The notes beneath the pieces were generated by a model. The model was not told the origin of the DNA. It saw only the letters and a list, made by a program, of their open reading frames with translations, and did no database searches. Position numbers and translations under genes: made by a program. From Pleurotus ostreatus/Saccharomyces cerevisiae fusant (lineage: Eukaryota > Opisthokonta): a stretch of 64,000 nucleotides of DNA. The DNA lies in NCBI GenBank assembly GCA_024196135.1, contig JAMQCK010000069.1, forward strand, positions 1 through 64,000. The letters are read 5' to 3'. Shown piece by piece: positions 9,103-64,000 of the stretch (position 1 is its first letter; each line of letters opens with the position of its first letter).

Positions 9103-11624
9103 TTACTTGCCAGACTTGCTGCCCTTCTTCGCAGCGCCGTTGCTCGACATGCGCGCCGTGGACTTGCTCACGTCTTGCGCCTTGACCTTCTTCCTCGCCC
9201 TCCTTGCAGGTAAGATTTCCAGCCCGTCGTCGTCATCGTCACCATCGCTGTCGTCGTCATCCTCCCCGTCATCGCGCGTGCGCTTGTCGCCAGTTTTCTT
9301 GCCCTGAGAGGGGCGCGTCGCAGGCGCTAGGTCGTTGGAAGAGGGGGCGGCTGCTACCTGGATAGAACTGGTGGCTATAGCTTGCGTGTCAGAGGGCCTG
9401 AGCTTGGCGCGAGATATCGCGGAGGGATGGCCTGCAGTTGACCGGGCGGGAAGTGGCGCAGTCGTAGGGTCTCGAGAAAGCGTACTAGTCGGGACAGCCG
9501 ATGAAGCCGCATGAGCAGACTGATTGGCGATGGGGTCTTTGGAGGGGTTTGCTCTTCTATGGCTCCCACCTAAGCCAGCAAAGCGTACGGACCGTCCCGA
9601 GGTGCGCGCAGGGAATACGATATGTCTGCCACCGGAGGACTTGGAAGCAACTGCCTCTGTCGACGTTGTTGCCTTGGCCGAGTGGGCGGGCGACCCAGTC
9701 TTGTCAGGGACGCCTGCGTCCGATGATGCGTATGCGTTGAGCGCTAGGTGTTCGAATGACGATAGTTGCCCCTCAGAGTTATTGCCAGTGAATAGACCGT
9801 CATCGCTTGCCACTGGCGCAGGTCGGCTCGCATGGTCATTGATGCCGTCGTCGTTCTGATGCGCAAGCGGAAGGACGGCATACTCGCCGTCACCGTCCTC
9901 GTCGAGGAAGCGCACGGTGCGTTTGATCTTCTGGTTCGTGCTCTTCTTGCCAGCGATCGAGTCTCGAATGTGATGTGACCTCGACGAGGTTGCCACCTGT
10001 TGGCTAGTCCTCGTCGTCGGGATAGGCCCAAGGGTATTGCGCTGCGATGGGCCCACAACAGAGTCTCCCGCATCAGAAGACGGGTAGGCGGAAGCTGCGC
10101 GCACGCGTCGTTCGATCGTCGTTGAGGAATGAGCGGGATTATCCTGGATCAAGAACTTTCGCATTTTCTCGTCGATGGCGTCTTCATCCACCGGGGGATC
10201 CGATGAAAGATCGAGTCCGCGCGAGCCCTGTTTGCCGAGAGGTTCTTCGGGCGCACTTCGTGCGAGACGCGGTGGAGGCCTGACAATTGGAGCAGATTGG
10301 CCGGCTCCCTCGGATTGTGCATCACGTCGAACCGCCGTGCCAGACGGGTATGCCTTGTCCTCCGGCATGTCTTCCCACGCCTCTTCCCCTTCGTCGTCGG
10401 AAAGTTCCTCGATGTCAGAGTCCTCTTCCGCGTTGACGCTCTCTTGCACGCCAGTCTCTTCCGCGTTGGCGCCCTCTTGAGCGTCCGTCTCTTCAGCTTC
10501 CGAGCTCTCTTCAGCATCCGAGCTCTCTTGCGCGTCCGTCTTCTCTTTGCTGTCTTCGAACCAATGCCGGATTGCTGGCCAGAGAACATTTACGAAATAT
10601 TCGATATCCTCGCGGGGAATGCCAACTGCACGCTCGCCAGTGGGGTCGTCGAGGCGATATTTCATCTTCATGGCGTAGTCGAAGACGACGAAGACCAGGT
10701 TGAGGTGGCTGACAAGAACGAACCCTTGGTCGCCCGTCTGCAGTATGAGGCGTTCGACTTCCAGCTCGTCAAGTTGATGCTCGATGTACTCTTGGTAGAT
10801 CTCTTCGTAGGTCAACTTGCGACCGTCCGGGGTCGTGCGCCTGTAGGAACGCTGGTAGGTCGAGTATCGGGGGAAAAGGTGCTTGTGCTTGTTCGGGAAA
10901 CCGTACATGATGAGCTCGTATTTTCCATCGGGGCAAAGCTGCATGACGGCGTTAGGGTTGTTTTTTAAGCGCTTGATGACGACGCACCTCCTTATAGTCC
11001 ATATCAGGATTTGCCCTCACGCGCGCGACGAAGCCGTCAAGGTCTCTTGGACGAAACGCCCAATCACCCTGCCAGGCCGAACCCGCCACGACGGAAGGTC
11101 CGTCGAACAGAAGGTGCAGCGCAAAATGAACTACGATCAACGTTCAGGATACCGTATTCCAGTCAAGGCGATGAGGTGGCTCACCGAATTCATAGTTCCC
11201 CTTGCTATCCAAGTCGACACGCTTCGCCCAAGTATGACTCTCCTTGTCGTAAGTCCAGCGGCCGACCTTTTTCTCGAAGCGTTCAAACTAGTGCGGCGAG
11301 CGTCAGCATGATGGCCGCCAAAAGGAGAAGATGCGGACCACTGACCAGTTCCTTATGTGAGCTTGGAAGTCTGCGACTCACGATATGGATACCATGCACC
11401 AGGTAGGGACAGGTCATCATGTTGGTGATCAGGCATATCCTGAGCCCGATGAGGCTCTCCAATTCCTGTCGAGCATTGCTGTTGCGCGTATCGCTGGTCT
11501 TGCCGGGTGGCGTGTTCTTGACGTCCTTGATCGTTCTAGACTTGTTTCCCTTGGCTTTTGGCTTGCCCTTCCCGCCAGCAGAGGCACCAGACTTGGGGCG
11601 GCGCGTGCCACCGGCTCGAGGCAT
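9103..11624 (-). CDS. A-1: HNH_2-like nuclease-type protein with long disordered acidic/basic tail
   Basis: Family A, copy 1. Exons (complement): 11624..11346, 11287..11185, 11130..10988, 10938..9103 (786 aa); intron phases 0, 1, 0 match A-2 and A-3. The first 60 residues are Arg/Lys/Gly-rich. His80 in GIHIVSR, Asn124 in KGNYEF and His133 in HFALHLLFDG reproduce the H...N-x8-H spacing of HNH_2 nucleases (AHIIP...NGIxL...LHxLFD), followed by DWAFRP. Next comes a conserved segment with QTGDQGFVLVSHLN and VVFDYAMKMKYR. Residues after about 290 are disordered: Glu/Asp/Ser repeats, then an Asp run, then a basic Arg/Lys stretch that could act as nuclear localisation signal. Head-to-head with B-1 across 424 bp. 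Nuclease activity is inferred from residue pattern only. Confidence 0.78.
10385..10565. repeat. Imperfect tandem repeats coding acidic segment in A-1
   Basis: Short units of about 15-30 bases built around ctcttcagcatccgagctct and ctcttgcgcgtccgtc repeat imperfectly. On the minus strand they encode units such as ESSDAEESSEAEETDAQEG. Length polymorphism between strains would be expected. Confidence 0.6.
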
Positions 11625-12048
11625 AGGAAAAAGACGAAGAATGGGAATGAGATGAGAGGAAAAGAGAAGGGGTGGAGATGTCACGCATACCGGAGGTTAT
11701 GTTTATATACGAGTCATTGTTTGCCGGTCACGTCCCGTGTGCTTGACGAGTCGCCCGGACACATGCCTGCGTGCAGGCGGCGTAAGGACTTATATGGTAA
11801 TTGATGGCTCGGGCGCAGCCGATACGCATCGCTGAAACAGCCACCAAGGCTTTCTCCATGTGCAGCATATACGAGCCGGCGGCGCAGTGCTTTCGGACAC
11901 AGGAGTGACAAAGGAGAACAATGGATGGTCATTTGATGGCCGATGTTTGTCGTCGTTGAGTGATCTCGGATCAACGGGCCGAGAATGGAATCCTTCCGAG
12001 CGCCGGGACCTCTGCCACTTCCGTCCCACCATTGCCGTCCTTCTCGTT
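11625..12048. promoter_or_regulatory. Divergent promoter of A-1 / B-1
   Basis: A 424 bp region lies between the two start codons. It contains TGACAAAGGAGAACAA at 11906-11921, about 285 bp before the A-1 ATG; on the A-1 strand it reads as CTTTGT. The same 16 bases occur at 18211-18226, and a close variant with three CTTTGT copies lies at 46231-46266 in the A-2/B-3 promoter. ACAAAG is the core bound by HMG-box factors in fungi. A regulatory role is inference. Confidence 0.5.
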
Positions 12049-13359
12049 ATGCCCCTTTACGGAGATCCCGTTTGCCCCGTCTCAGGCGCAACCACCAACA
12101 TATATCGCTCTCCGCTTATCTCTTATAAGGTTGTCGAAGGCAACGATATCCAAGTAAGTCAGAGCAACGTGTTTGAAGGCTCCAGTGGTTAAGAGAAGAC
12201 TAGGTTGCATATATAGAATGGATATTCGGGTTGCGACGAGGCGGACTCTTTTACTATCTTCGTTCGAAAGAGAACTATGCCTTCTGTAAGCAGCCTATCA
12301 CTGTCATGTTTGCCGTATGCTCACATTCGCAGTTCGCCGAGATATCAATGACATGTTCCGGCGCGGAGAGTTCATTCTTGCCCCCACATACAAAACATAT
12401 CTGGACACTATGCGATTCGTAGAACGTTCAGACCTCAAGAACCGCAAAGTGAGCGATAGGTCTCCCAGACGACCATCGTCAGCGGTAAGCGCAATGCAGT
12501 TGGGTGCAAACAAGAGTTCTGACAAGAACAGCTCGCCCCTTCCAGTGGGATGTATCGCTACGTGTTCATACCGTTCACGAAGGCTGCACGCGCCCTTCAA
12601 ACGGAGTTCGAAATGCAGCCGCAAACTCCAGAAGATCTGAACGGAGGCATATACCCACTCAATAACAGGCCGTCTCCCAAGGGAAGCCACCAATTCCCTG
12701 TGATTGAATGCCCGGCGCACCCTTTCTCCATATGTACGCGCGCATCAAAAGTTTTCTCCAAACGCTCGACGCCCCTCACCGCCCAGTGGCACAGACTGTG
12801 TAAGGCCATCGTCGAGATTTGGGAGTACCCGCAGATCCCGCTCCCTGGCTGGTTTGTCGACGAGCCAAAGTACGGACACGACGACGAGGAGCTAACGCCT
12901 TCCGAAGCTACGGGCTACATCATGAAGACTCCCACTCATGCCCTCGACCCTATCGCACTCCTGAAGGACGACAGCTACGTGGACGAGCACTACTGCAGGA
13001 AGTGTGCGAAGTGGGCCCTCGACGTGCCCCCCGACGCGCCGCCGCCCGAGGAGGATCAACCCCTCGCGCCGTACCGCGAGCGCCGCTCTGTGCGCATCGC
13101 GAAGCGCGGGCGGCCATACCCTCAGCTATCGGACTCTTCATCGACATCCGATGACTCGACGTCCGATGAGTGCTCCGGTCCGCTTCCGTCACCGATTCGC
13201 CGAGGGCGGCGTGCACTGCAGACGTGCAGGCGCAACCCCGTCAAGAACCCGCCTTGGTGGGCGGCGCGGAGCGGAAACTACCCCACGCGGACGTTCTGCA
13301 GCAACGACTGGGCGTACTTTCGCTGTAACGTCTACCTGGCCTCGGCTGCGTACACCTAG
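12049..13359 (+). CDS. B-1: pseudo-HNH family protein
   Basis: Family B, copy 1. Exons: 12049..12153, 12204..12285, 12333..12484, 12532..13359 (388 aa). Order of motifs: CPVSG near residue 8; EWIFGLRRGGLFYYL; Asn59 in ENYAF; RRDINDMFRRGEFILAPT; RPSSA at the exon 3 end; YRYVFIPFTKAARALQ; PQTPEDLNGGIYP; ECPAHPFSICTR; TPSEATGY; a C-x2-C zinc-knuckle-like CRKCAKWALDVPPDAPPP; RRSVRIAKRG; and near the end RRALQTCRRNP then FCSNDWAYFRCNV. The residue nine after Asn59, His in HNH_2 nucleases, is Asn68 here, and the first His position is Pro (SPLIS). Likely catalytically dead relative of the A fold. Divergent partner of A-1. Confidence 0.8.
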
Positions 13360-14571: not shown

Positions 14572-15912
14572 ATGACTATCCACCGCGACTACCGAGGCGA
14601 CCTCGTCTGCACCATATCCGGGGCGAAGACCAATCTGAAGCGCTGCATATTGATACAGGACGATGTTTTAGAGCGAAAGAAGGACGATGTGAGTCACTGC
14701 TAATCGTACGCACCTGTGATACTAAACGCCCACGTATAGATTCTTGCCATCGAGTGGGTGTTTGGAATACCAAGAGGGAGTCTTAGATGCTATCTCAACT
14801 CGATGGATAACCGCGTTCTCTGTACGCTTCTGTTATCCTTCCCAAAACTCTGATCTGAACTGCTTCTCAGTACGCGAAGATATCAGCCGTCTATTTTGCC
14901 GCGGAGAGTTTATCCTTGCTCCAACATTCAAGACCTACATTGACATTGTCCACTTTGTGAAACGTGCCGGTATCCAGGATCGCAAGACGAGCGACAGGTC
15001 CCCTCGTCGACCCCTGACAGCGGTTGGGCAAGTCAACTCGTCGTTCAAGCCTCAGCTCATCGTTTACAGCTAGCATCCTCTGAAGGAATGTATCGATACG
15101 TCTTCATTCCACGTACGGACGCCGCACGCAAGCTTCAGGCTGAGTTTCCCATGGCTCCACAGACTGCGGAGGACCTGAATCACGGTTTATATCCCCTCGG
15201 CAATGCACCGTACAAGGAGGGGACCGAAGATTTCCCCGTGGTGGAGTGTCATGCGCACCCGTTCTCCATTGCCATGCTTGCCTATTGGCGGCTTCACACA
15301 TGTTGCACTCTTCTCACTGGGCAGTGGTATGCGCTGTCGTGGAAAATCACCCGAATCTGGAGCAGCGAGTTCGTCAAACCGCCGCAGTGGTTTCTTGACT
15401 CGCCCGAGTACAACCTATACGACGAAGCTCTCAGCCCTAGCGAAGCTACTGGATACATTCCGGTGTTGCCAGCTGACTTCGAACAACGCGGTCCTATCCA
15501 GCCTCGAGGACACGACGTCATTGGCAGCCTCCGCGACTGCAAGCTACCGGAGGACAGCTATCCCGACAAGTGCACAAAGTGGGCATTCGAAGTCCCTCCT
15601 GACGCCCCTCCTCCCAAGGAAGATCCTCCCTGCCCTCCCTACCGCGAACGGCGCTCGGTACGCATCGCGAGGCGCGCGCACCCGTATCTTCGCTCGTCGG
15701 AGATTAAGTCGGCGGGCGAAGATTGCGGTGGTCCGCTTCCGTCGCCGACGCGCAAGGGCCGTCGCGCGCTGCAGACGTGCAAGCGCGACCCCGTCAAGAA
15801 CCCGCCGTGGTGGGCGTCGAGCAACGGGCGGTACCCTACGGAGAAGTTCTGCAGCAACGATTGGGCGTACTTTCGATTTAACCTTCGCTTGGCCTCACCC
15901 GAGTACACATAG
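14572..15912 (+). CDS. B-2: pseudo-HNH family protein
   Basis: Family B, copy 2, tandem to B-1. Exons: 14572..14688, 14740..14821, 14871..15022, 15070..15912 (397 aa). It shows CTISG (the usual Pro is Thr), EWVFGIPRGSLRCYL, Asn63 in MDNRVL, REDISRLFCRGEFILAPT, SPRRPLTAV, YRYVFIPRTDAARKLQ, VECHAHPFS, SPSEATGY, KCTKWAFEVPPDAPPP, RRSVRIARRA and FCSNDWAYFRFN. The position of the last HNH His (residue 72) is Ser. The GGL motif of other copies is GSL, so this copy is drifting. No A gene is attached, and no ACAAAG element was seen in the 270 bp upstream. Confidence 0.8.
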
Positions 15913-19711: not shown

Positions 19712-20270
19712 GCTGGCTCTCATCCTATGGTCGCTTCTTCCTCTCGCGCTCGAGTCTCCGCGCTGGCGCGGTTGACTCCTCTACTCTTAGCGCTTTCCTC
19801 GACGCGTTTCCCATCACTTTCACGGCTCGGCTCGACCAATGTCGAGTCTCACACCTCGCATCTCTCATCACCACGCACGCAAACACAACACGCACCATCA
19901 TCACGAACATAGACCGCATCGCACTCATCCCCATTGTATTTCTAGCATTAGCTTCTCTGTATCGATCATCCCCTACTACTATTTCCACTAATATCTCTGC
20001 CCTACGAGTAGATTCTTGCTACTGTATCAACCCCTGTTGCATGTAGCTTACTACGTCCGCGCATACAGTACCCCGCCACATTAGTTCATACCTACCGCTA
20101 TAATAATCACTACCCTGCGCTACAAGTGCAGCTGCATCTAGAATCTTGTGTGTATCAAAAAAAACCTCGGCATGGGATAAGCGTCCGACTCGGTCCCAAG
20201 CTCGCACTTGGCCATCGGTTTGGTGGGCGTACTCGAGTATAAAAAGATCAAAACACAATCGCAAAACTCA
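19712..20270. other. Gap, 3' flank and tRNA downstream region
   Basis: AT-rich, no gene. On the minus strand T runs just beyond 20271 (TTTTG, TTTTT within about 45 bases) are candidate Pol III terminators for the tRNA. Confidence 0.5.
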
Positions 20271-20353
20271 GGGCCTGACCGGGAATTGAACCCGGGACCT
20301 CCTCGATAAGCAAGTTGCCCTAACAAGGAATCATACTACTAGACCATCAGGCC
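20271..20353 (-). tRNA. tRNA-Pro (AGG), 11-nt intron
   Basis: Cloverleaf read on the minus strand: acceptor GGCCTGA/TCAGGCC with discriminator C; D arm GTCTAGTAGTATGAT; anticodon stem TCCTTG/CGAGGA around loop TTAGGG-T with anticodon AGG. An 11-nt intron (CAACTTGCTTA) follows position 37. The T arm is CCGGGTTCAATTCCCGG. Exonic sequence is identical to the copy at 27267-27349; only the intron differs. Confidence 0.93.
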
Positions 20354-27349: not shown

Positions 27350-27356
27350 TTTTTTT
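27350..27356 (+). terminator. Pol III terminator of tRNA-Pro
   Basis: Seven T residues immediately after the discriminator base of the tRNA at 27267-27349. Confidence 0.85.
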
Positions 27357-40330: not shown

Positions 40331-41833
<1,503 letters not shown>

Positions 41834-44800: not shown

Positions 44801-46122
44801 CTACCTCTCGTCGAATGACGCCAGATAGACGTTGTACCTGAAGTACGCCCAGTCGTTGCTGCAGAACGTCTGCGTGGGGTAAGTCCCATCCCGCGCCGCC
44901 CACGACGGCGGGTTCTTGATGGGGTTGCGCTTGCACGTCTGCAGCGCACGTCGGCCTTTGCGCGTCGGCGACGGGAGCGGGCCAGAGCAGTCTTCTTCAG
45001 CAGCAGAAGGCGACTTGGGCGGGCGGTGGTACGGATGCGCGCGCTTCGCGATGCGTACCGAGCGGCGCTCGCGGTAGACGGAGTGGGGAGGGTCCTCCTC
45101 GGGAGGTGGTGCATCCGGAGGCACTCCGAGCGTCCACTTGGCGCACTTCTTGCAGTAGTTGTCTTCCCCGATAGCGACATTCTTGAGTATTTCGACGGGG
45201 TTGTGATCACGTGGACGGTGCTCGGGCACGACATAGCCTGTTGCCTCGGAGGGTGTGAGCCCCTCGTCATCCTGTGTGTACTTCGGCTCCGCGAGAAACC
45301 ACGTCGGAGGCTTTATTCGTTGATGTTGCCACTGCCTGGCGATCCGACCGCAAAGCGCGTGCCACTGCGATGTGAGGGGCGTAGAGCAGGTGAAAAGCAT
45401 CGCGTATGCCCAGGAGCAAATGGAGAATGGGTGCGTGAGACACTCGACGACCCGAAATTGATCGCTTCCTGGGGGATACGGTTTGTTGTACACGGGGCTG
45501 ATACCACCGTTGAGGTCGTCCTGGGTTTGTGGTTTCAGATGGAATTCATCTTGAAGGGCGCGAGCGGCATCTGTAGTGGGTATGAATACGTAACGGTAAA
45601 GACCGCTCGCCGGAGCCAACTACCCTGTTCAGCACTTCGCTTAAAAGAGGAATTAGACTAACGCACTGCGGACATTGGCCGACGAGAGTGTTTATGGGCC
45701 GTTCTACGAGCTTTCTGCCCTGCAAACTCTATGAAACGCATGGCGTCCAAGTATGTCCTGTAAGTGGGCACAAGCACAAATTCTCCTGCCCGAAACATCT
45801 CGTTTATGTCTTTGCGCACTAAAAACTTCGTCAGATGAGTCAATGCGGAGGCAGCCACATAACTCACGGACGATATGATTTTCCGGAGAGCGCAGGTAGT
45901 AGGGAAGGCCTCCTCGATTTAGCCCGAATATCCATTCCTGACATGCAATCTATATATATCGCACTCAGATGAAAGAGTAAGTAGCCAAGGAAGGAATGAA
46001 CTCACACCCATAGGGCTAACGTCTGGGGAATCATAAGGTATCAGAGGAGACTCGTATATGTCAGTTGTTGCGCCGGTGATTGGACAGAGAAATTCATCGC
46101 GGTAGTGCTCATACGCAGTCAT
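44801..46122 (-). CDS. B-3: pseudo-HNH family protein
   Basis: Family B, copy 3, divergent partner of A-2. Exons (complement): 46122..46006, 45949..45868, 45818..45667, 45619..44801 (389 aa). Motifs: CPITGATTDIYESPLIPYD; EWIFGLNRGGLPYYL; Asn63 in ENHIV; RKDINEMFRAGEFVLVPT; RRPMSA; YRYVFIPTTDAARALQ; VECLTHPFSIC; TPSEATGY; KCAKWTLGVPPDAPPP; RRSVRIAKRAHPY; PLPSPTRKGRRALQTCKRNP; FCSNDWAYFRYNV. The HNH His positions are Pro26 and Asn72. SPLIP aligns with the AHIIP of HNH_2, showing the His-to-Pro change most clearly. The ATG at 46122 matches the starts of the other B genes; an upstream in-frame ATG at 46158 exists. Confidence 0.83.
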
Positions 46123-46568
46123 AGTCGGCTGGGTGGAATGGTAGGAAGGAAGTGGCAAGTCTGCCTCCGAGCTCGGTCCGACATGCCGTTGTCAAACATC
46201 GTCAAACCCATCACTGGAAGCAAACCTTTCATTGTTTTCTCCTTTGTTCCTTTGTTCTCTTTGTCGACGCCTCGTTGCAACCATGAATCATGGCTGAAAC
46301 ACGGGGAAATGGCTCGCGTGGATACCCTCGACGTCCGTGCGATGACCAATCCCCACCGTACAGCAGCCATCACATACCATATAAGGCATTCGTTTGCTGC
46401 GAAACAGTCACGGCCACCCAGGTGGCGGACAAGGCCATGGCCCAGATGAAATGAACCGAGTCATTTAAATACACCGATTATTCTTCTCTCCCTTGTTTTC
46501 TTTCTTGTCCTCTTCCTCTTCCTCTTCGTCGTCCTCGTCTTCTCTCCCCTCTCCTCGCATTGCTGGAC
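46123..46568. promoter_or_regulatory. Divergent promoter of B-3 / A-2
   Basis: 446 bp. At 46231-46266 the A-2 strand has three CTTTGT boxes in a TTTTCTCCTTTGTTCCTTTG-type run; its complement reads GACAAAGAGAACAAAGG, close to GACAAAGGAGAACAAAGG at 18212. It lies about 300 bp before the A-2 ATG, nearly the same distance as the element in the A-1/B-1 promoter. A CT-rich leader at 46485-46560 precedes A-2. Confidence 0.5.
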
Positions 46569-49164
46569 ATGGCACAGCGCAGCCGCGGTGGTATCTCGAG
46601 CAAGCCTTCCGCCACAGCTGGTGGGCGCTCTAAATCCAAAGCTACCCAAGCTCGTCGCAACTACCACAGCAGTGTCGAGGGGTCGCCTGTGAAGGCAACT
46701 GCCAAAGAGCGTCCGCCCGAGCTCCCGCGCAAATTGCTGAAGATAGTCGGGGTAAGGAGATGCGCAATAGGCTGTATGATTGGTCCCCCGTGGCTAGTCC
46801 AGGGTATACACATCGTCAGCCGGACGCTCAAGAACACGCACGGAGAGATCGTAAGCACATCACCCTTCAATGTAGACCCCGCTGACGCTTCGTGTAGTAC
46901 GACCGTTTCAGAAACTGTGTCGGGATCTTTGACGAGAAAACTGGAGAGAAGGTCATAGATCTGGATGACATCGGAAACTACGAATGGGGTGAGTCGCACT
47001 CCAGTGCTTCACGATGGGATACTCATTTCTACTCCACAGCCCATTTCGACATGCATCACCTTTTCGATGGCCGCTCTGTACAGGGGCGTGCATACGGAGG
47101 AGGGGAATGGGCATTTCGCCCCAAGAATCTGAGGGCATTGACCGCGCATCTGAAGGCCAATCCTAATGCAGACCACAAGACGGTGCGTCGCATAAGCATA
47201 CCTCATAAATGTAACGCTCATCATAGGGATAGTTGTGCCCAAAGGGTCTATACGAGTTCATCGTATACGGCTTTCCCGGCGCTCAGGAACATCTGTTCGG
47301 CCGGTACTCGGAGGACCAACGCACCTACGCTCACCTCAAGAAAGAGGACGGCAAAGAATGGACCAAGGACGAAATCCTCCAGTGGTACATGGAAAGCCAA
47401 CACCGTCACGGCCCAGTCGATGCGCGCATACTGCAAGTCGGCGACCAGGGCTTCGTCATTATCAGCCACATGAATCCCGTTTTCGTCGTTTTCGACTACG
47501 CCTTGAAGATGAAGTATCGCATCATCGACCGCCCGAACGAACCGGATCTCATCAAGGGGATGCCCCAAGAAGATATCGACTTTTTCGTTCACGAGCTGTG
47601 GCCTGTTGTACAACCCTGGTTCGAGGCTCGCAAGCCGCCGCAAGCGATTGCTGTGGCCAAGAAGCAAGCGATTCGATCTACCGGTCCTAGTGGCGTCGTT
47701 CAGTCCGAAGGCGCCGTCAAAGTCGCTCCTGTCACTCCACCAGTGCGCGCCTTCCAGAGCGCCCCTGAGAAGGTCCCAGTCGCGCGCGTTTCCCCACCTC
47801 CAGCCTTCCTATATCCAGAGTCAACTAGAGTCGCTGAGGTCAAACAACACGTGCTCTTCGGCGGACCTTCGACTGACATGGGCGAAGTGCAACCCCGCTA
47901 CGCGTCGTCCGACGCAGGCGCATCCGACGCGACCCAATCGCAATACGATGATACTGAGTCTCTGGACGACGCTTCATCTAATTCAACAGTCACTGCTATG
48001 TCTGGCTCTGGGCTTGTGGCGACGTTCTCCGACGATTGCGACTTTGATGTTGATCCTGAATACGGCGCCGACGAATGTGATCCCAAGTACGACGACTGCG
48101 ATTATGTCGACGACGACGAGCCCGATGCGAAGGACGACCACGATGTCCAGACCGGCTGGCACGAAAGCGACGACCATCTCGCTTTCGATAACGTCCAGGA
48201 GCACGGTCATGCGGTGTTCGACGACGCTGAGGAAATCTTATGGAACCGAAGGAAGCCCCAAAGAGCCATGAGCGAGTCGCCTTGCCCTGCGGGGCCAATG
48301 CACGAGGTCGATCCTACCTCTGGCGACGACTCGGATGCAGAATCGACTGCGACCATACGAGACGAGCGTGACACGAATACATTTGCTGCCGCGAATGCAT
48401 TCGATCAAGAACCACCACCGTCAGACGATCCTCCTTCAGTCCCGCCTCTCCGATCGACTATATATGCAACGTTAGCACCACTCCCAGCGCTCTCGATATC
48501 TGGACTTAAGAAGCCGACCGCGTCCAATAAATCCAAGAAGACCGTACACTTTGTTCGCAAAGACGAGGATGATCCTGGGGAACGCGACGAGCGTTCCGAT
48601 GATATCGAGAAGCAGGTGGCTTCGTCCTCCGCGTCGGCCTCCTTGTCCACCTCGGACCCCTCCTCCTCCTCCTCCTCCTCCGCGAGGACGACCGCCAAAT
48701 CGCCTCCCATCGAATCGCATCCATCGACCACCTCTGAGCCACCTCCCGACGACTCGCTGGCCCAACTACGACGCTCCAAGCGTGTCAAGCAACCTCCCAA
48801 GACTCCCGGGATTGTGCATGCGCCTCCTCCGAACGCGCCATCTCGGGCTGACCGACCCAAGCGCAGCGGCAAGGCCAACAAGGCGGCTACACCAAGGACT
48901 GCGGCAGCGGAAGCGGCTTCTTCGTCCAACGATCGAGGGCCCGACCAGCCTCGCCCTCCCGCCAAGTCACGCGGTCAGAAGCGTACTCGAGACGACCGTG
49001 ACGAGGACGATGACAATGTCGACAATGGCAACGAGGTAGAGGACGACGAAGACGCGGACGAGAGCGACGACGTCGAATCCGTTCATTCCGAATACCTACC
49101 TCGCGCGAAGAGGGTGAAGAGGACCAAGGCGGCCGCCAAGGGCAAGGGGAAGCCCGACAAATAA
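46569..49164 (+). CDS. A-2: HNH_2-like nuclease-type protein with long disordered tail
   Basis: Family A, copy 2. Exons: 46569..46850, 46898..46988, 47040..47182, 47233..49164 (815 aa). Exon 3 is 143 nt, as in A-1. Residues His81 (GIHIVSR), Asn121 (IGNYEW) and His130 (HFDMHHLFDG) keep the H...N-x8-H geometry, followed by GEWAFRP. LCPKGLYEFIVYGFPG opens exon 4; QVGDQGFVIISHMN and VVFDYALKMKYRI follow. Residues past about 310 are disordered: Asp/Tyr-rich patches, a poly-Ser run encoded by TCC repeats near 48660-48690, an acidic block and a C-terminal basic cluster (RAKRVKRTKAAAKGKGKP). Convergent with B-4. Confidence 0.8.
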
Positions 49165-49504: not shown

Positions 49505-50820
49505 CTAGTTCTGGTCGGCATACGAGGCGAGGTAGACATTATATCGAAATAAAGCCCAGTCGTTACTGCAAAATCGGTGACTGGGGTATCGGCCGTTTCG
49601 AGACAACCACGAAGGCGGGTTCATGATCGGATTGCGCTTGCATGTCTGCAACGCATGGCGAACTTTGCGCGTCGGCGACGGGAGCGGGCCAGAGCAGTCT
49701 TCCTCAGCGCGAGGCGACTTAGGAGGCCGGTAATAAGGGTGTGCGCGCTTGGCGATGCGGACCGAGCGGCGCTCGCGATAGACGATGTGAGTGCGGTTCT
49801 CTTCTGGAGGTGGCGCATCCGGGGGTACACCGAGCGCCCACTGGGAGCATTTCTTGAGGTAGTGGTCGTCCGGCAACCCGTGACTGTCGAGTAGCTTGGG
49901 GGATTCGCGACAATGGTCCGTGCTCTCCAAGAGGTATCCTGTCGCTTCAGAGGGTGTGAGGTCTTCATCGTCCTGTCCATATCTGGGATCGTCCATAAAC
50001 CACGCCGGTGGTTGGATCCTCTTGTAAAGCCAGATCCTAATGACGCGCCCACATAGAACATGCCACTGCGACGTGAGGGTTGTGGAGCGTTTGATGAACA
50101 AGGTGAATGCGCGCGAACAGATCGAGAACGGATGCGTCAGGCATTCTATCACGGGGAATTGGTCGCTCCCTTCCTCGTACGGCTTGTCGTCTACTGGGCA
50201 TATGCCACCATTGAGATCCTCCTTAGTCTGCGCCTGCATCTTGTACTTTTTCTGGAGCGTGCGCGCCGCGTCCGTGCACGGAATAAAGACATAACGGTAA
50301 GTCCCCTTCGCAGTTGCGAGCTGCCTCACTTGATCAGCACACCTCACTAATGCAAAGCAAAACGGCCTACCGCACATAACGGTCGCCGCGCCGACCTGTC
50401 ATTGGCTTTGCGCCCTATGATACCCGAGCACTCTATAAATTTCATGGCATCCAGGTAAGTCTTGTAGGTAGGGGCTAATATGAACTCTCCTCGTCGGAAG
50501 AGGTCATTAATGTCCCTTCGGACTGAATAGCACGTTAGATGGACACGATACGCAGAAAGGAGAAACGCACAAACGACGTAGTTCTCTTGAGAGCGTAGGT
50601 AGTAGTAGAGGCCACCTCTTCTGAGTCCGAACACCCATTCCTGGCGAGCGACCTGGGCGATACCACAGTCAATAACACGTAAAGCCCCTGTAAACTATCG
50701 TACCCTTGTTGCATCAGCATCTACCGCATCATAAGGGATAAGCGGGGACCGATACACATTGTCTGTTGAGCCAGAGATAGGACAGATGTACTCGGTGGGA
50801 TACCGCTCAGAAAGGGTCAT
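49505..50820 (-). CDS. B-4: pseudo-HNH family protein
   Basis: Family B, copy 4. Exons (complement): 50820..50704, 50652..50571, 50522..50371, 50320..49505 (388 aa). CPISGSTDNVYRSPLIPYD; EWVFGLRRGGLYYYL; Asn63 in ENYVV; RRDINDLFRRGEFILAPT; RRPLCAV; YRYVFIPCTDAARTLQ; ECLTHPFSICSR; TPSEATGYL; KCSQWALGVPPDAPPP; RRSVRIAKRAHPYYRPPKSP; FCSNDWALFRYNV. His positions are Pro26 and Asn72. It has no A gene upstream; the next gene upstream is the MFS transporter. Two ACAAAG elements at about 50861 and 50875 lie within 60 bp of its ATG. Similar enough to B-3 in the exon 4 tail to suggest a fairly recent common origin. Confidence 0.83.
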
Positions 50821-54952: not shown

Positions 54953-57257
54953 GTTTCAGCGGACGGAAGGCGGGACACGCACCATCGCAGGGACCTCTAC
55001 ACACATCGAGATGGACACGCGCGGGGGAAACGTCGTGGGGGGGCGAAGACAGGAAGCGATGAGCAGAATCCGGGGCGCACACGGGCAGCTCCACTGGCGA
55101 TGGGGTGGCGGGAGCGCGGACGGGTGAGGTAATATATATGCTGGCACGCGGGCGGGGCGGGGCGGGTGGGGTTGCAGGCTGCCGCGTCAGAGAGGACGTT
55201 TGGGTTTTGTACCCGCTCGTCCCCCTCGAGCTCCGTGCCCGGCAGTGTGCGTCGCAGCAGCTCTCCTCCGGCGTCCGCGTCAGGCCCTGGCTGGGCCGTC
55301 AAATTCCCGCTTCACCCGTGTCACAGGCCGCCATCAGCATGCTGTGCCCGCCAACAGCCACTCATGTTGCTTTTCCCGTCCTTGTTCTCGCGCTTCATTG
55401 GCTGTCCGGTTGCTCCTTGCGACGCGAAACAATGGACGATGACAACATCCTCGGAGCGGGGCACGAGGAGAAGGGTGATGCGTGACTACTCTTTCTTTAA
55501 ATTGTCACGGACTTGGACCTTGCCTCCTCTCCACCGTTGTCCGCGTCAGAGCGGTTTGTTTGGAGTTTCGCACATCTCCCCCGTTGTCGCCTGGCGCGTC
55601 GGGGGACAAGAGATGCCGCCTCAATCCACTCGAAGGTTCGGGGACAACAGAGAAAGTACGCCCGACGTCACATCTTCACGATGGCGCCAAGTCGGCAAAT
55701 GCGCATCCCGAACCGGTCAATGCAGTGACCGTGAAGAAGTTCAACTTGGGATTCCCCGACATCGACGACCCAGCACTGCAGCGCAGCCCTCATACAGCCC
55801 AGGCTTTCTGGATCAGTAGTAGGCTGTGAGCACAGTCGGTTTCGGATGCCTGTACCAAGGAAGCCCGCGAGGACTCTGCCGTTCACACTCGTCATCTCAT
55901 TTCAGGTCGTCTCTGAGTATATTCGCTATTCCCTTCCTCGGTGCTCTATCTCCTTCTTACGCTTACGTACCCTCCCCTTCTCTCCATGAGCCTAAATCCT
56001 CTCAGTTTCGTCTCATCGTCGTGCGCTAACGCGCGTCCTCGCTGCAGATGTCGTCAGGATCTCGCATTGCGGTCGACTTCCCACTCGTCCTCACATCCCC
56101 GCCTTTCCCAAGCAGCATATCAGCAACCTGTAGCCTCTTCCTATTCAACGCAATAAACATCACGTTGATCCCATCTAATCCTGCTGCGACATGATGCTCG
56201 CAGATCCTGCCAACTCCGGTACGTTCCCCACGCTATCCTCAAGCAGTGCTCCTGGAAAAAGCCTCAGGATGAACGCGTCGTCGGTGGTATCGCTGTACAG
56301 AACATGCCGTCGAGATCGTGTCCGCCATCCGGCTCGAGAAGAAACGCCGCCGGACGTCGGACACGTCCGTGGCCCTGTGCCCGCGGCTCCTTCCACCACG
56401 CGCCGACGCCGCTCATTGACTCCCGGACACATCTCGCCACCTATCAGTAACGACGTCAACCGTTAGATCGTGCAGATCTCCCGTTTAACCAGCCACAGCT
56501 ACGCCCCTGGACTGCGCTGCGTCATCCGCTTCGAAAGACAATCACCCTCATACGGTCCCGACAAGCACGACGCGACCACGATGCGCCGCGACACTCACCC
56601 CCTCAGCCGGCGTTCACGGTCCTCTACCAGCGTTCACGCCCCTCTACTGCTTCAGTCCTTCATGAACGCCCCCCGACTACAGCTACTGTCGAGACTCGAC
56701 AGCTCTCCGGCGCTAGCTTATCACGCTTGCAGATCCAGATCGTCTGCTGGAAGATTCCCTGCCACCCTTGGCGGCGCAGTCTAATCGACGCGTGGCGAAG
56801 TCGAGTTTGAGGCGACGGCCGTCAGCCCGCTTGATGGGCTCCTCGGACTCGTCTCGCAATATACCTGAGGTCCATTTAATTGTGCGGTCGGCCAGTCTGC
56901 CGCTTTGGCGCGAGGTCGTCTTCCTCATGACTTTCTTTGGCCCGCGATCTGATCCTCGCTTAAGAGCGATATCTTTCAGTGTGTTCAAGTCCACTCCAGG
57001 TAGCATGACGTATCAGCATCTGCTTACTCAATAGCGACATATTTCTATACTACAGGTCGCTCGTTGTGGGTAGGGGGAGCCCCAGGAAGATTATCTGCAC
57101 GACCTGGGCGCCAACGTCGCCGGAGTTGAACTCTCGGGACCGAAGCACGCGGATAGCATGCATGCGCCTGATGCAATCAATTCCCTTGTTGTCTCCTTGG
57201 TCCAAGCGTGTCGGATACTGCTCTGCCTCTTCCCTTTCGTTTGCCTGGCTACTTCGG
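54953..57257. other. Gap between phosphatase and B-5
   Basis: 2.3 kb without a convincing gene. Several overlapping Ser/Arg/Pro-rich frames at 55.1-55.9 and 56.2-56.8 kb show no domain. Contains the phosphatase promoter (TATA-like atatatat near 55130) and, at the right end, the B-5 upstream region. Confidence 0.45.
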
Positions 57258-58561
57258 ATGGAGAAGCCTTGGCTAAAGTGCCCAATGTCTGATGAAACTG
57301 AGCGGCTTAGTCGCGCTAAACTCATCTCGGATTCAGTGGTGGACGAAGAGGATCTCAAGGTTCTACCCCTCTCTGAGGTCTTTGTATGGACTCTGACAGA
57401 GGGAACGTAGGTTGCCAGGATAGAATGGGTATGGGGCTTGAATCGAGGAGGTCTTCTTTACTATCTTGCACAGCCCCACAACTGCATATTCTGTACGTTG
57501 TCTACTGGGTGAGTACCACTTGATAGACACTAACCTTGCTCAGTTCGCAAAGATATTGCGCACATGTATGCCCGATTTGAGTTCGCACTTGCGCCTACAT
57601 TCGACACATACATTGAGATAATGCAATTCCTTGAGCATGCCGGTATCAAGGACCGCAAAGAAAAGGATAAATCTCCGCGTCGCCCGCTAACTGCAGTAAG
57701 CACAAGCCCCTTGTTTCCCTCAATTACTAACGCGATCTATCATAGCTTTCACCAACGGGGCGCTTACACCGCTATATCTTCCTACCGTTTACCGACGCCG
57801 CCCGCAAGCTACAGTCCGAACTTAACTTGCAGCCGCAAACCGATGCTGGGATAGATCCCCCGAGCCCAGATCTGGCCCCATGTCGTGAAGGCTGCCAGCC
57901 GCTTCCGGTCGTCGAGTGCTACGCTCACCCGTACTCTGTGAGCACCTGCGCCGAGCGCGCCTTCAAGCATCACACCACGGGCGCGCACATAACGGCGGAT
58001 TACTCTGTCTTGGCCCGCAAAATCGTCCGCCTATGGTCAGACGAGGGAATCCAGCCCCCGGCGTGGTTCGTTGATACTCCTGGGATGGACGAGGACGACC
58101 AGACATTGACGAGCTCCGAGGGCGTCGGCTACGAGATGAGCGTCCTCTCGCAGGTCGAAGGATTACAGGCCGAGGGTGCCGTGGCGCCGCAGCCCACGCG
58201 CAAGCGAATCGTCTTCGACGACGACGAGGCCTTCCGGGCTAACGTCTCCGACTGGGCGAAGAAAGTGGACCCCAAGTCGAAGCCTCGTAAGCAGCCCCCG
58301 ATACCTCGTTCCGAAATCCCGCTGCGCCGTTCCGTACGCATCTACAATCTCGCCCACCCATACAGGAAGCCACCTCCTGTTTACCGACCGGACTCACCTG
58401 TGCGCCAAGCACCGTGGCCAACCGAAGAGGCTCGAGACCCAGTTAGTCACCCGCCTGCATGGACGAAGCGTAATGGCCGATTTCCGACGCGGAAGTTTTC
58501 GAGCAACGACTGGGCGTACTTCTGTCGTGGCGTCGCTCTTGCGGCTCCTGGAGAGTCCTAG
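57258..58561 (+). CDS. B-5: pseudo-HNH family protein, second subgroup
   Basis: Family B, copy 5. Exons: 57258..57359, 57411..57492, 57544..57695, 57746..58561 (383 aa). CPMSDETERLSRAKLI; EWVWGLNRGGLLYYL; Asn58 in PHNCIF; RKDIAHMYARFEFALAPT; SPRRPLTA; HRYIFLPFTDAARKLQ; VECYAHPYSVST; DWAKKVDPKSKP; RRSVRIYNLAHPY; and FSSNDWAYFCRGVALAAP. Here the last His position is Ala67, the FRRGEF motif is YARFEF and FC(SND) is FS(SND). The glycine of CPxSG is replaced by Asp. The zinc-knuckle-like KCxKW of the first subgroup is missing. Together with B-6 this is a distinct subgroup in tandem. Confidence 0.82.
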
Positions 58562-59010: not shown

Positions 59011-60310
59011 ATGTCCTATAGCCCTTGGCACAGATGTCCTCTCTCTGGCGCAGTGGAAAACCTCGCGAGAATTCAACTCATTCCAGACTCAGTTGTCGAC
59101 GAAGATGAAACCAAGGTAGATATTCCTCATTCTGAATCTCGCTTTGATAGTAATGAAAGTATCACAGGTAGCATGTATGGAATGGTACTGGGGCCTGAAG
59201 CGAGGCGGATTGCTGTACTATCTCGCCGAGCCACATAATTATATCTACCGTGAGCGCAATCATTGCATACGGTCAACTACTGCTAAGTTGGCCCTCCAGT
59301 TCGCCCCGATATCGCTGAATTATATGCGCGTTTCGAATTCCTCCTTGCGCCCACTTTCAAGACGCACTTGGATATCATAGAATTTCGCAGATACGCCGGT
59401 GTCGTGAAGCGCCCAGAGGGAGATATGACCCCCCGCCGCCCGTTGACAGCGGTACGCATGAATGAGGCCGTCTCTCATCCTATCACTTACTCTTGCCTGA
59501 CAGCTTTCACCCAAAGGCCGTCTCTACAGATATGTGTTTGTCCCCTTCACTGACGCGGCGCGCAAGCTGCAGGAGAAACTGCATTTGCCACTTCAAACAG
59601 AAGAGGATCTGGCGTACGGGATTCATCCTGTGTCGCGGACTCCGTGGCTCGAAGGCTGTGATGCATTTCCGGTCGTAGAATGCTACGCACATCCATACTC
59701 CGTCAGCACTCTGGCAGAACAAATCTACGCGTATCATAAACCCGGTACGCGTATCACGGCGGAGTATTCCCTCACTACTCTCGACATCGTCCGGCAATGG
59801 TCTCAGGATGGGATACAGCCTCTAGAATGGTTCGTCGAAGCTCCTGGTATGGACGAGGACGACCAAACGCTGGCTGGATCCCAAGCCGATGGCTACGATA
59901 TCAGCATCCCCACACAATCGGACGCCATCCCAACACCTGATACCACCCGAAAGCGCAAGATACGAGACGAGGAGGATGAGTTCACCGTCCGCGTCGCCAA
60001 ATGGGCTCGAGGCGTGGATCCGAAGTCGAGGCCACTCGAGCAGCCTCCAAGGCTACCTTCCCCAATCCCCGTCCGTCGTTCCGAGCGTCTACTAAAACGC
60101 GCCTACCCGGATGGAAACCCACCTCCCGTCTACAGACCGAAGTCTCCCGTGCGCAAGGCGCCATGGCCGACAGCTTTCGGTCAGGATCCCGTCGGCCACC
60201 CTCCGGCGTGGACGAGGCGTAATGGTCGATTTCCGACGCGAAGGTTTTCAAGCAATGACTGGGCTTACTTCTGTTGTGGCGTAGCCCTCGCGGCACCCCG
60301 GAAGTCCTAG
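59011..60310 (+). CDS. B-6: pseudo-HNH family protein, second subgroup
   Basis: Family B, copy 6, tandem to B-5. Exons: 59011..59115, 59168..59249, 59300..59451, 59504..60310 (381 aa). CPLSGAVENLARIQLIPDS; EWYWGLKRGGLLYYL; Asn59 in PHNYIY; RPDIAELYARFEFLLAPT; TPRRPLTA; YRYVFVPFTDAARKLQ; VECYAHPYSVST; PGMDEDDQTLAGSQADGY; KWARGVDPKSRP; RRSERLLKRAYP; FSSNDWAYFCCGVALAAP. The catalytic His positions are Gln and Ala68. Shared replacements with B-5 indicate duplication of a B-5/B-6 ancestor. Confidence 0.83.
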
Positions 60311-61344: not shown

Positions 61345-62924
61345 CTAGCCAGTCTTCCTCTTCTTCGTCTTGCGGTCGGCGCCTGCGGGGACCTCTGACG
61401 TAGCAGCGCGCTTGGCAAGCGCGATGGGGGCGGCAGGCGAGGCATCCGTCATCCTCGAGCGAAGATCGTATCGAGAGAGAGGGGCAGCGGCAGAATTGGC
61501 ATCGGATTGCCTCCGCGAGCGAAGTTCGTACCGGAACGAGAATGCAGCGCCAGGCGCAGTGGGCGCGGTGTCTTCGAACGCCGGCTCTGTGTGAGCACTC
61601 CGACGCTTAGTCGAGGCAAGGCGCTTCGGCTTGCGTGTGGGAGCAGTTTCGACCTTCTTCTTGGAGGCCAGCCGGCGAGAGCGAGACGTAGAACCCTTGA
61701 AGACGTGATCGCCGAGTTCCCTTTCGAGCCGAGCGATAGCATCCGGTGTCTCCGCCTCGAAGAGATGGGAGAGCGAAGCATATAGCCTGATGTAAAGTCG
61801 TTCTTCGGCGTCGGATAGGGTACCAGGGACCTTCTTGGTGTGGCGCACATGGAGCTTGAGGGTCGCGTTCCAAAGATGGAAGGCTGGCTTGGTGTGGCTG
61901 ACAACGATGCGAGGGGCATCGCGGGGGAGCCAGAGATCATGTGGTATATATCCAGGGGGAAATTTGGGGCGTTCTCGACAGCTGTTGGGAATGTCGTCTG
62001 GTGTGATGACTCGCGCCTTCGTTTCGGACTCGTCGTCCGTCTCGCCGGGTTGAGGAAAGTCCACAAAATCCCCGTTTTCGGGGTCTTCGGCCTCTTCGGT
62101 GGCTTCAAATGTCGACGGGAGCAGGGTGTCAAGGTGTTCATAAGTCCGCTGCAGAGGACCCCAGCATGGCATCTGCATGGGTTGGCAGCAGCTGAGGTGG
62201 TGGACGGCGTATGTGAACTTGCGGGCGGGGAACATCTAGCGTAGGTAGGTCAGTAAAGACGCCCGAAAGGTAGACGATACAACGACGTACGTCAAGGTAG
62301 CTCTGTTTCGTGCCCTTCGCATTCTCCATGATTGTCAGGCATTCTTCCAGCTCGACAGGAAGCAGAAAGAAGTTGCCATCGCCCAGGCGCTCTTCGTCGT
62401 CAGACGAACCATCGAAATACTTGTGAGATAGGCAGTTCACTGCGACAATAAGCTACTGCACATCAAGCATGCATCGGTATCAGTACTCACTGAGATCACA
62501 ATTGCCAGTGCAGTCCAAAAATAAGACCCGCTCTTCAACACCGTTAATGGTGACGATTTTCCCAATGGCTTCTTGCAATAGTATGAACTACGCAAACGTC
62601 AGTATGCGTTGATAGTGAAGACCTGAGACTCCGGCGCACCAGTCTTTTATTAGTTCGCTCCAGAGATCTTGGCACAATGTGGATGAGGTGAAGCACAGTG
62701 GGGTCGACAAATCCCCACAAGACACAGGACACAGAACCTATGAGCGCGATGACCTTCTTCTTGCCCGCCTTCCATCGATGAACGGAAGTTCGACGTGTGG
62801 GTGTCGACCTGAGTAGATCTCTCAAGAATTGGGCGCCATCGAACTCGGGGGTGCTCTGTCGAGGGGCGTCGGCGAACCGGACGGTGGCCTGAACTACCGC
62901 ATTCGAGGGACCGACGTCCGACAT
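61345..62924 (-). CDS. A-3: HNH_2-like nuclease-type protein, shorter form
   Basis: Family A, copy 3; exons (complement): 62924..62640, 62587..62491, 62439..62291, 62235..61345 (473 aa; an in-frame ATG at 62969 would add 15 residues). Intron phases 0, 1, 0 equal those of A-1 and A-2. HLIHIVPRS (His82), TGNCDL (Asn124) and CLSHKYFDG (His133) preserve the H...N-x8-H spacing. FPPGYIPHD and VSHTKPAFHLWNATLKLHVR correspond to the SHxNxVF segment of the others. The tail is much shorter: a basic region with SRSRRLASKK and KPKRLASTKRR, then two repeats of the type YELRSR/YDLRSR. Divergent partner of B-7. The most diverged A copy. Confidence 0.77.
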
Positions 62925-63258
62925 ATTGTAGGAGGATGGGTGACGGGCGTCTGGAGGAAGACCGAGCAACCATCGTTGCGCTCCTTTTATTTAAATACTC
63001 AGCGCCGACCATTGTGTCGGTCATGTTTTTGTCGAACGTGCAAGTCATTTCCCCATTGGGTTTGATCTGCGTTCATCATAGGGAAAGGACAAAGCAGGAT
63101 GAATGGTCTGGCCCGTAGCCTTGTTTGCCACGGAGATGGCGGTCGAAGACAAGTCCGAAGTCCACATGTCACGCGCGGCGTCCGATTCTGTGACGGTGGC
63201 GTGACCGAACAACGCGTCGATCAGACTCGGAGCGCCCTTGTTTCCTTCTCGAACCGCC
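62925..63258. promoter_or_regulatory. Divergent promoter of A-3 / B-7
   Basis: 334 bp. ACAAAG at 63089-63094 reads CTTTGT toward A-3, about 165 bp before its ATG. It is weaker than the elements of the other two pairs. Promoter function is inference. Confidence 0.4.
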
Positions 63259-64000
63259 ATGCCACCATCCCCAGCCTCCTCTGCTAGCACAACCTCCCTA
63301 CATCAGCGACTATACTGTCCCATATCTGGTCCCAATTCAGAACTGATAACTGTGCAATTGATAGAGGAGAAACCTAAGAAGATAGAAGAACCTGAGGCAT
63401 GTTCCTTCTCGAATGGTTGTTATACCGCAGCTCATCTGCGACAGTCAGGATGTATGGAATGGCTCTTTGGCCTCCCCCGCGGGGGGTTGTCTTACTATCT
63501 CTCGTCGCCGCAGAACATGATCTATCGTGCGTGTCTTCGACTCGACGGATTCCCATCCTTAACGCAATCACAGTTCGTGAGGACATTGCGGAACTCTACG
63601 CCGGTGCCGAGTTCACCCTTGCACCTACTTTCGAACTCTACTGCGATATCATGGACTTCGTCAAGCATGCTGGCGTCGTCGATCGTGACGAAGAGGACGA
63701 GTCGCCACGCCGCCCTCTGACTGCGGTGCGTTGCCTGTAGCACTCCGCATGCACTTGTCTGATTAACGAACGAAATGTCTAGCTTTGCCCACCTTCTGGT
63801 CGGTATCGCTACGTATTCATCCCCTTTACGGAGGCGGCACGCAAGCTACAATCCGAGTTCAAGATGCAACCACAAACAGAGGCCGACATGAACGGGGGCG
63901 TACATCCTATCGAGAATAAAGCCCTCTTTCCCGGCAGCGATCAATTCCCGGTCGTGGAATCCCACGCCCACCCATTCTCAGTCTGCAACTACGCTAACGA
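63259..64000 (+). CDS. B-7: pseudo-HNH family protein (partial, runs off window)
   Basis: Family B, copy 7; the right edge cuts exon 4. Exons: 63259..63396, 63445..63526, 63574..63725, 63783..>64000. It shows LYCPISGPNSELITVQLI, EWLFGLPRGGLSYYL, Asn70 in PQNMIY, REDIAELYAGAEFTLAPT, SPRRPLTA, YRYVFIPFTEAARKLQ and VESHAHPFSV. The last His position is Ala79. The first intron appears to use GC-AG (GAG|GCATGT at 63397), because only this join keeps exon 2 at 82 nt and in frame. Divergent partner of A-3. Exon 4 resembles subgroup 1 (MQPQTEADMNGGVHP), whereas exon 3 resembles subgroup 2 (IAELYA). Confidence 0.78.

What the first reader, a model, noticed from the sequence alone, without database searches (positions are those of the whole stretch)
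9103..64000. Repeated head-to-head pairs of an HNH-like (A) and a pseudo-HNH (B) gene
Three A genes each lie head-to-head with a B gene (A-1/B-1, B-3/A-2, A-3/B-7), in both orientations, across 334-446 bp. Four more B genes have no A partner. A keeps a full H...N-x8-H pattern; B keeps the Asn but has lost both His positions. This resembles a two-component module: an active enzyme paired with an inactive relative, with the inactive part expanded. It also looks organised like divergent HD1/HD2 mating pairs but has no homeodomain. A role in genetic conflict, self/non-self recognition, or regulation is inference.
Basis: partly seen in the sequence, partly recalled or inferred. Interest (0 to 1): 0.9.

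Follow-up and report, generated by a model that had tools for sequence, protein, structure and literature searches.

The report
Paired nuclease-like and dead-nuclease fungal genes
In the split-gill mushroom, every gene found for a nuclease-like protein lies back to back with a gene for a related protein that has lost the cutting residues, and the two have evolved together, which points to an undescribed two-part system, perhaps for conflict or recognition between individuals.

Summary
The genome is Schizophyllum commune (Agaricales), not a polypore. Three A genes (H...N-x8-H) and seven B genes were modelled; A1/B1, A2/B3 and A3/B7 are head to head over 424, 446 and 334 bp. Genome-wide searches found nine intact A genes and one truncated relic. 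All nine have a divergent B 334-717 bp away; the relic faces a B too. B is far more numerous: 41 nearly complete last exons, and 25 of 34 Bs in fetched DNA have no intact A. No solitary A was found. Distances among As and among their partner Bs are congruent (Mantel r 0.77, p 0.0002). In 22 A sequences H, N and H are invariant; in 69 B sequences N is kept in 67, the last His in none, the first in one. Both profiles match real HNH_2 domains in register, above all 150 shuffles. Named public relatives are all Schizophyllum. A2 differs strongly among strains, without a calibrated baseline. Best reading: an HNH nuclease (A) kept together with an inactive paralogue (B) that controls it, in intraspecific conflict or nonself recognition. 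Catalysis, binding and phenotype are untested.

The parts
9103..11624 (-). A1: HNH-like gene, 786 aa, exons 11346-11624, 11185-11287, 10988-11130, 9103-10938; head to head with B1
   Evidence: splice model; H...N-x8-H
11625..12048 (.). A1/B1 divergent intergenic region, 424 bp
12049..13359 (+). B1: pseudo-HNH gene, 388 aa, four exons, partner of A1
14572..15912 (+). B2: pseudo-HNH gene, 397 aa, no A partner
44801..46122 (-). B3: pseudo-HNH gene, 389 aa, partner of A2
46123..46568 (.). B3/A2 divergent intergenic region, 446 bp
46569..49164 (+). A2: HNH-like gene, 815 aa, exons 46569-46850, 46898-46988, 47040-47182, 47233-49164
   Evidence: alleles in six other strains
49505..50820 (-). B4: pseudo-HNH gene, 388 aa, no A partner of its own
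57258..58561 (+). B5: pseudo-HNH gene, 383 aa, no A partner; weak donor site (GTTCTA) in intron 1
59011..60310 (+). B6: pseudo-HNH gene, 381 aa, no A partner
61345..62924 (-). A3: HNH-like gene, 473 aa, four exons, head to head with B7
62925..63258 (.). A3/B7 divergent intergenic region, 334 bp
63259..64000 (+). B7: pseudo-HNH gene, 399 aa, partner of A3; continues to contig position 64610; intron 1 modelled with a GC donor

Best explanation
A and B are the two parts of one module. A is a nuclear protein with a divergent HNH_2-type nuclease domain, a second conserved domain and a long, mostly unstructured tail with basic clusters. B is its paralogue of the same architecture whose nuclease fold has lost the catalytic histidines. 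B is co-expressed from the shared divergent promoter region and binds or otherwise neutralises or licenses A (inferred). Alleles and copies of the pair diverge, so A is held in check only by a fitting B; meeting a nucleus that lacks the fitting B would release A (inferred). That makes it a nuclease with a dead-paralogue controller, used in intraspecific conflict or nonself recognition. Shown: shared ancestry with HNH_2, loss of His in B only, the obligate pairing of A, joint evolution of the pair, and the excess of B. Inferred: that A cuts nucleic acid, that B binds and controls A, and the biological role.
For: (1) All nine intact A genes found have a divergent B at 334-717 bp; a random-placement model gives 1.6e-13 within the clusters, 2.5e-17 on whole contigs. 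A tenth, truncated A relic also faces a B. (2) Asymmetry as in poison-antidote sets: no A without B in four genome-wide A searches, but 25 of 34 Bs in fetched DNA without an intact A, and 41 nearly complete B last exons in the genome. (3) Congruent A and partner-B distances, Mantel r 0.774, p 0.00024; 6 of 9 pairs have the same nearest pair on both sides, two of these sister sets spanning different contigs. (4) H, N and H invariant in 22 of 22 A (9 own, 13 public) at about 34-42% mean column identity; in 69 B, N 67 of 69, last His 0, first His 1. (5) A and B match real HNH_2 domains in register, probabilities 67% and 77%, E 5.1e-5 and 2e-5, 0 of 150 column shuffles as high for either; 8 of 8 sampled reference domains are PF13391. 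(6) Intron 2 splits codon N+4 in phase 1 in all hand-built A (A1-A3, A6) and B (B1-B7) genes. (7) Basic clusters in the last 130 residues of 9 of 9 A. (9) A2 proteins of seven strains are only 68-93% identical in the HNH region, A3 and P0079 67%.
Against: No expression, binding, catalysis or phenotype data. Pfam itself calls neither: 0 of 13 A match HNH_2 at E<=10, 1 of 33 B at E 0.15. A and B match each other only weakly (hhalign probability 4-7% local; 41% global over the longer stretch). The A model is poor (mean pLDDT 51). A2 and B3 do not diverge in step in every strain: EV714 has A2 at 64% but B3 at 87%. Divergence among strains has no baseline from ordinary genes here, and S. commune is known to be hyperpolymorphic (PMC9187340, passages). 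Joint duplication explains the congruence without any binding. For A5, A6 and A7 the nearest pair differs between the A and B sides. A diverged solitary A could be missed by four single-sequence queries.
Confidence: 0.42

Rival explanations
1. A/B is a regulatory heteromer like the HD1/HD2 mating proteins: two diverged paralogues from a divergent pair that form an active DNA-binding complex only in non-self combinations; the HNH fold is used for DNA binding rather than killing.
For: Head-to-head pairing in the same species that has head-to-head HD pairs working by non-self combination (PMC12193891, passages); nuclear-type basic clusters; strong allelic divergence; congruent trees.
Against: H, N and H are invariant in 22 of 22 A, which points to metal binding and catalysis; B is kept alone 25 of 34 times, odd for an obligate heteromer; no homeobox or STE3 match on the A/B contigs.
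Confidence: 0.2
2. A is a genome-defence or repair nuclease and the Bs are decoys or guides with no self/non-self role; divergence merely reflects the hyperpolymorphism of the species and local birth and death of B copies.
For: Local tandem B duplicates beside paired Bs (B7 and C935:65385, 87%; C480:152151 and 156645, 76%); broken B copies (C480:133246-134043 with in-frame stops; fragments on C1267, C724 and C935); known hyperpolymorphism.
Against: Does not explain why A is never found without a divergent B.
Confidence: 0.2
3. A/B is a selfish element (homing-type HNH gene or meiotic driver) spreading through genomes, with B as its resistance factor.
For: HNH chemistry; copy-number excess of B; pairs on four contigs.
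Against: Four-exon genes with old, joint divergence (A paralogues share 43% at best); no terminal repeats or transposase were seen near the pairs in the parts of the sequence that I read, though I did not search for them systematically.
Confidence: 0.12
4. Ordinary lineage-specific gene family expansion; pairing is a by-product of duplication of one ancestral divergent pair without functional coupling.
For: All pairs may descend from one ancestral pair (congruent distances), so the nine pairs are not nine independent events.
Against: Unit duplication should also leave solitary As as it leaves solitary Bs; 0 solitary A against 25 unpaired B of 34.
Confidence: 0.06

Closest known systems
HNH_2 (PF13391) endonuclease domain
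   Same: C-x2-[ST]-G upstream, H in a hydrophobic strand, N-x8-H followed by LFD; in-register profile match of A and B
   Different: Below Pfam detection; a long insertion between H and N; fused to a second conserved domain and a long tail; B lacks both His
HD1/HD2 mating-type pairs of Schizophyllum commune (A-alpha, A-beta)
   Same: Divergent head-to-head pair, paralogous partners, strong allelic divergence, basic nuclear-type proteins
   Different: No homeodomain (no Pfam match), HNH-type domain instead; not on a contig with a homeobox or STE3 match; one partner greatly expanded and often alone
Poison-antidote and toxin-antitoxin systems, and fungal spore killers (recalled, no call)
   Same: Enzyme-like part never without its partner; partner often alone
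   Different: Partner is a dead paralogue of the same architecture; toxicity and immunity not shown
DFF40/CAD nuclease with its inhibitor DFF45/ICAD (CAD as an HNH-fold nuclease: PMC3482391, passages; the inhibitor is recalled)
   Same: HNH-fold nuclease held by a dedicated partner protein (analogy only)
   Different: Not tested for homology; the inhibitor there is not a dead copy of the nuclease domain (recalled)

Membership tests
HNH_2 (PF13391) | Whole-protein score above the Pfam cut-off | tested here: not met
   Window A and B exon translations 0 matches to HNH_2; 0 of 13 A at E<=10; 1 of 33 B at E 0.15, none over cut-off
HNH_2 (PF13391) | H, N and H active-site residues at the family's spacing | tested here: met
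   A only: 22 of 22, aligned to the family's H, N and H. B: not met (last His 0 of 68 non-gap, first 1 of 67 non-gap)
HNH_2 (PF13391) | Profile-profile relatedness | tested here: met
   A probability 67%, E 5.1e-5; B probability 77%, E 2e-5; 0 of 150 shuffles as high; reversed profile 11.9 and 16.1 bits against 32.6 and 35.0
HNH (beta-beta-alpha metal) fold | Predicted fold matches solved HNH structures | tested here: inconclusive
HD1/HD2 mating pair | Homeodomain | tested here: not met
   No Pfam homeobox match in window A or B exons, in 13 A or in 33 B
HD1/HD2 mating pair | Location at the mating-type locus | tested here: inconclusive
   Homeobox_KN matches only on C286, STE3 on seven other contigs, none on A/B contigs; chromosome-scale linkage unknown; the Mating_C search was uninformative
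Poison-antidote pair | Poison gene never without the antidote gene; antidote may be alone | tested here: met
   0 of 9 intact A without B; 25 of 34 B without an intact A
Poison-antidote pair | Toxicity of one part and rescue by the other | not testable with these tools
   needs experiment
Homing endonuclease or mobile element | Insertion at a target site, mobility signatures | not tested
   only repeat finder on the window, which showed no element ends at the genes

The most novel reading that the evidence does not exclude
An undescribed, multi-locus, hypervariable nonself-recognition (or nuclear-conflict) system of a mushroom: divergent pairs of an HNH nuclease and its dead paralogue at several clusters, with a large repertoire of extra dead paralogues acting as specificity or immunity factors.
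Probability: 0.3. Interest if true: 0.92.

Novelty: new variant of a known kind. Interest (0 to 1): 0.75.

Why it matters
Schizophyllum commune is the model for extreme mating-type diversity, yet genes for other forms of recognition or conflict between its nuclei are poorly known (general knowledge). A gene pair with one apparently catalytic and one dead HNH paralogue, kept head to head in nine of nine cases, inherited as a unit and very different among strains, is a concrete candidate that can be deleted and crossed. If A proves to be a nuclease held by B, it would be a eukaryotic nuclease-plus-dead-paralogue controller with its own allelic repertoire, and would give a direct test of conflict in a fungus whose two nuclei share one cell.

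Tried and rejected
Polypore origin: rejected, the closest relatives are S. commune proteins (A8 99% to P0078, C480:102345 97% to P0036, B4 91% to P0001).

C480 as the other haplotype of C935: 8 kb of flank (30300-38300) has no second copy; only 65-75% matches of short stretches elsewhere. C147 and C452 (86% in B) could still be haplotypes of each other; duplicated STE3 contigs (C722/C866, C573/C708) show that the assembly may hold some haplotigs, so B counts may be a little high.

Clear N-terminal hypervariability with a constant C-terminus, as in HD proteins: looked for and not found. A2 alleles differ all along, most at 301-350 and 1-50. One allele (P0074) is a mosaic: 84-88% to A2, P0072 and P0073 in the HNH region but 68-69% at 401-815, where those three are 96-99% alike.

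A shared promoter motif in the nine divergent intergenic regions: top 8-mers in 4 of 9; shuffles reached 4 or more in 25 of 200: no evidence.

Pfam for the A and B exons: no usable hit. PDB by sequence: best E 0.041 (A, apolipoprotein E helices) and 0.33 (B), judged chance. Mating_C family: no match here and none in the controls. JGI gene numbers in the literature: only accidental number matches.

Literature: searches listed nothing on this gene pair; mostly titles and abstract starts were seen, passages of four papers. The library is open-access only.

Third protein search scored only the 7997 candidates sharing most words, so A relatives in other genera may have been missed.
Full report
What is there. 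I rebuilt the genes from the DNA by reading frames and splice sites. The window holds three A genes and seven B genes, each with four exons and introns of 47-58 bases in the hand-built models. Two introns need a GC donor (B7 intron 1; A6 intron 3, outside the window). B7 ends at contig position 64610, outside the window. B2, B4, B5 and B6 have no A.

Organism. The best database relatives are Schizophyllum commune proteins (B4 91%, and outside the window A8 99% and C480:102345 97%). S. commune belongs to the Agaricales, so 'polypore' is wrong. The genome held is 40.05 Mb in 1277 contigs; the window is the first 64 kb of a 101.6 kb contig, C935.

Genome-wide survey. Searches with B4 and with a diverged B give 41 nearly complete B last exons on nine contigs, plus fragments; the tool calls such counts lower bounds, and some may be haplotype copies. 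In the DNA I could fetch there are 34 B genes with a recognisable exon 3; 29 were modelled automatically and B2 by hand. Searches with A2, A3, A9 and A7 give nine intact A genes: A1-A3, A4 (C935:93828-95314), A5 (C480:99811-101908), A6 (C480:153781-155974), A7 (C2:84876-87347), A8 (C724:297283-298946) and A9 (C724:292645-294166). Two weak hits on C893 and C914 (E 0.12 and 0.36) were not confirmed by the A exon profiles. A further A relic, C480:86650 onward, has exon 1 up to just before the catalytic His and then no A exons in the fetched 320 bases.

Pairing. Each of the nine intact As has a B start codon upstream in divergent orientation, at 424, 446, 334, 376, 436, 336, 717, 686 and 350 bp. 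The relic also faces a B. If A start points are placed at random among the same Bs, the joint chance is 1.6e-13 within the clusters and 2.5e-17 on whole contigs. This overstates independence, since pairs duplicated as units; the window of 100-720 bp was set after seeing the data; and five B start points were approximate. The converse does not hold: 25 of the 34 Bs have no intact A. About a kilobase upstream of most Bs was in hand; the genome-wide A searches are the stronger evidence that their partners are absent, but a strongly diverged A could escape them.

Joint evolution. Pairwise distances among the nine As (first 340 residues) and among their nine partner Bs correlate with r 0.774 (24 of 100,000 permutations as high). 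The sister pairs A1/A2, A3/A8 and A4/A9 are also sisters on the B side, and the last two lie on different contigs. For A5, A6 and A7 the nearest pair differs between the two sides. Extra Bs are often closest to a neighbouring paired B (B7 and C935:65385, 87%; C480:152151 and 156645, 76%; the three C2 genes, 69-76%). So the core is an old divergent pair, around which B multiplies locally.

What the proteins are. Single-sequence Pfam scans name neither. I therefore compared profiles. The A profile (22 sequences) and the B profile (69 sequences) were set against 80 bacterial and archaeal HNH_2 domains, of which 8 of 8 sampled pass Pfam's HNH_2 cut-off. A matches with probability 67%, E 5.1e-5, and B with 77%, E 2e-5; none of 150 column-shuffled HNH_2 profiles scored as high (best 22.8 and 23.8 against 32.6 and 35.0 bits), nor did the reversed profile. 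Both alignments run in register: Cys-x2-Ser/Thr-Gly, the first His, Asn, and the second His before LFD. In A these H, N and H are present in 22 of 22 sequences (nine own, 13 public), although the paralogues share only about a third of their residues. In B the Asn is kept in 67 of 69, the last His in none of 68 and the first in one of 67 (gaps left out). In the hand-built genes (A1-A3, A6, B1-B7) the second intron splits codon N+4 in phase 1 in both families, and the first and third introns are in phase 0; in the automatically built genes these phases were imposed, so they do not count. A and B match each other only weakly when compared directly (probability 4-7% locally; 41%, E 4.7e-5, in a global comparison that also aligns the second domain). 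Common ancestry rests on the shared HNH_2 match, the co-linear second domain and the introns together.

Distribution and variation. Of 71 public B relatives, 68 carry a name and all of these are Schizophyllum (commune, fasciatum, amplum); three have none. The 13 public A relatives are from the same three species. Eleven of the 13 lie on a contig (same strain tag and contig length) that also has a B hit; P0072 and P0084 do not. A2 has one relative in each of six strains, 64-89% identical to A2 over the aligned length; among the seven, the HNH region is 68-93% and the tail 68-99% identical, with one mosaic allele. A3 and its relative P0079 share 67%. Partner B3 relatives are 84, 96 and 87% in H4-8, EV122 and EV714. 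I ran no ordinary gene as a baseline, and S. commune is the most polymorphic species known, with haploblocks read as a sign of balancing selection over about a tenth of its genome (PMC9187340, passages). So balancing selection at A/B is plausible, not shown.

How it most likely works. Shown: A keeps a complete HNH motif under constraint; B is a dead relative; A is not found without a divergent B; B is often found without A; the pair is old and inherited as a unit. From the asymmetry I infer that an A without its B is not tolerated, as with a poison and its antidote, and that B is therefore the controller of A. From the basic clusters in 9 of 9 As I infer that A acts in the nucleus. From the divergence among strains and the stock of extra Bs I infer a role between individuals: conflict between nuclei or nonself recognition. 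The chief rival is an HD1/HD2-like regulatory heteromer, which S. commune also encodes in head-to-head pairs (PMC12193891, passages). Neither pheromone-receptor nor homeobox matches lie on the A/B contigs.

Novelty. HNH nucleases, dead-enzyme partners and head-to-head recognition pairs are each known. I found no description of this combination in nine searches of the open library, eight by subject and one by gene number; most hits were seen as listings only. A survey of toxin domains notes that HNH-fold domains occur in fungi and suggests use in intraspecific conflict (PMC3482391, passages), and a survey of gene transfer into fungi lists one HNH endonuclease with Ka/Ks above 1 (PMC11708051, passages); neither passage describes these genes.

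Noticed in passing
C480:86650-87070 (loci L018): Truncated A relic: intact start and exon 1 up to just before the catalytic His, then no A exons in the fetched 320 bases, still head to head with a B.
   Followed up: partly
C480:133246-134043 (L012): B last exon interrupted by in-frame stops (or sequencing error); described only.
   Followed up: no
C935:80841-80993 (L003): Fragment of a B last exon, 14 kb beyond the nearest B gene on that side.
   Followed up: no
window 20270-20353 and 27267-27350: 84-base inverted repeat, 96% complementary, arms 6.9 kb apart, outside the A/B genes.
   Followed up: no
window 29851-30028 and 30089-30266: 178-base direct repeat, 80% identical, ending just before an HMG-box gene at 30303-31160.
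   Followed up: no
window 21659-42039, 54179-54955: Housekeeping-type genes lie between the A/B genes: PHM7_cyt, amidase, DEAD helicase and dual-specificity phosphatase matches, so the cluster is interspersed, not one solid block.
   Followed up: partly
G000 C722/C866 and C573/C708: STE3 receptor matches at nearly the same positions on pairs of contigs, suggesting haplotype copies in the assembly.
   Followed up: no
public proteins P0003-P0006 and P0014: 631-669 aa annotated proteins, each with stretches like two different Bs (P0003-P0005), probably two tandem B genes fused by gene prediction.
   Followed up: no
G000 C67:47393-47656 (L001): The one fungal HNH_2 match over Pfam's cut-off in this genome; it has no intron between Asn and the last His, unlike A and B.
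   Followed up: partly
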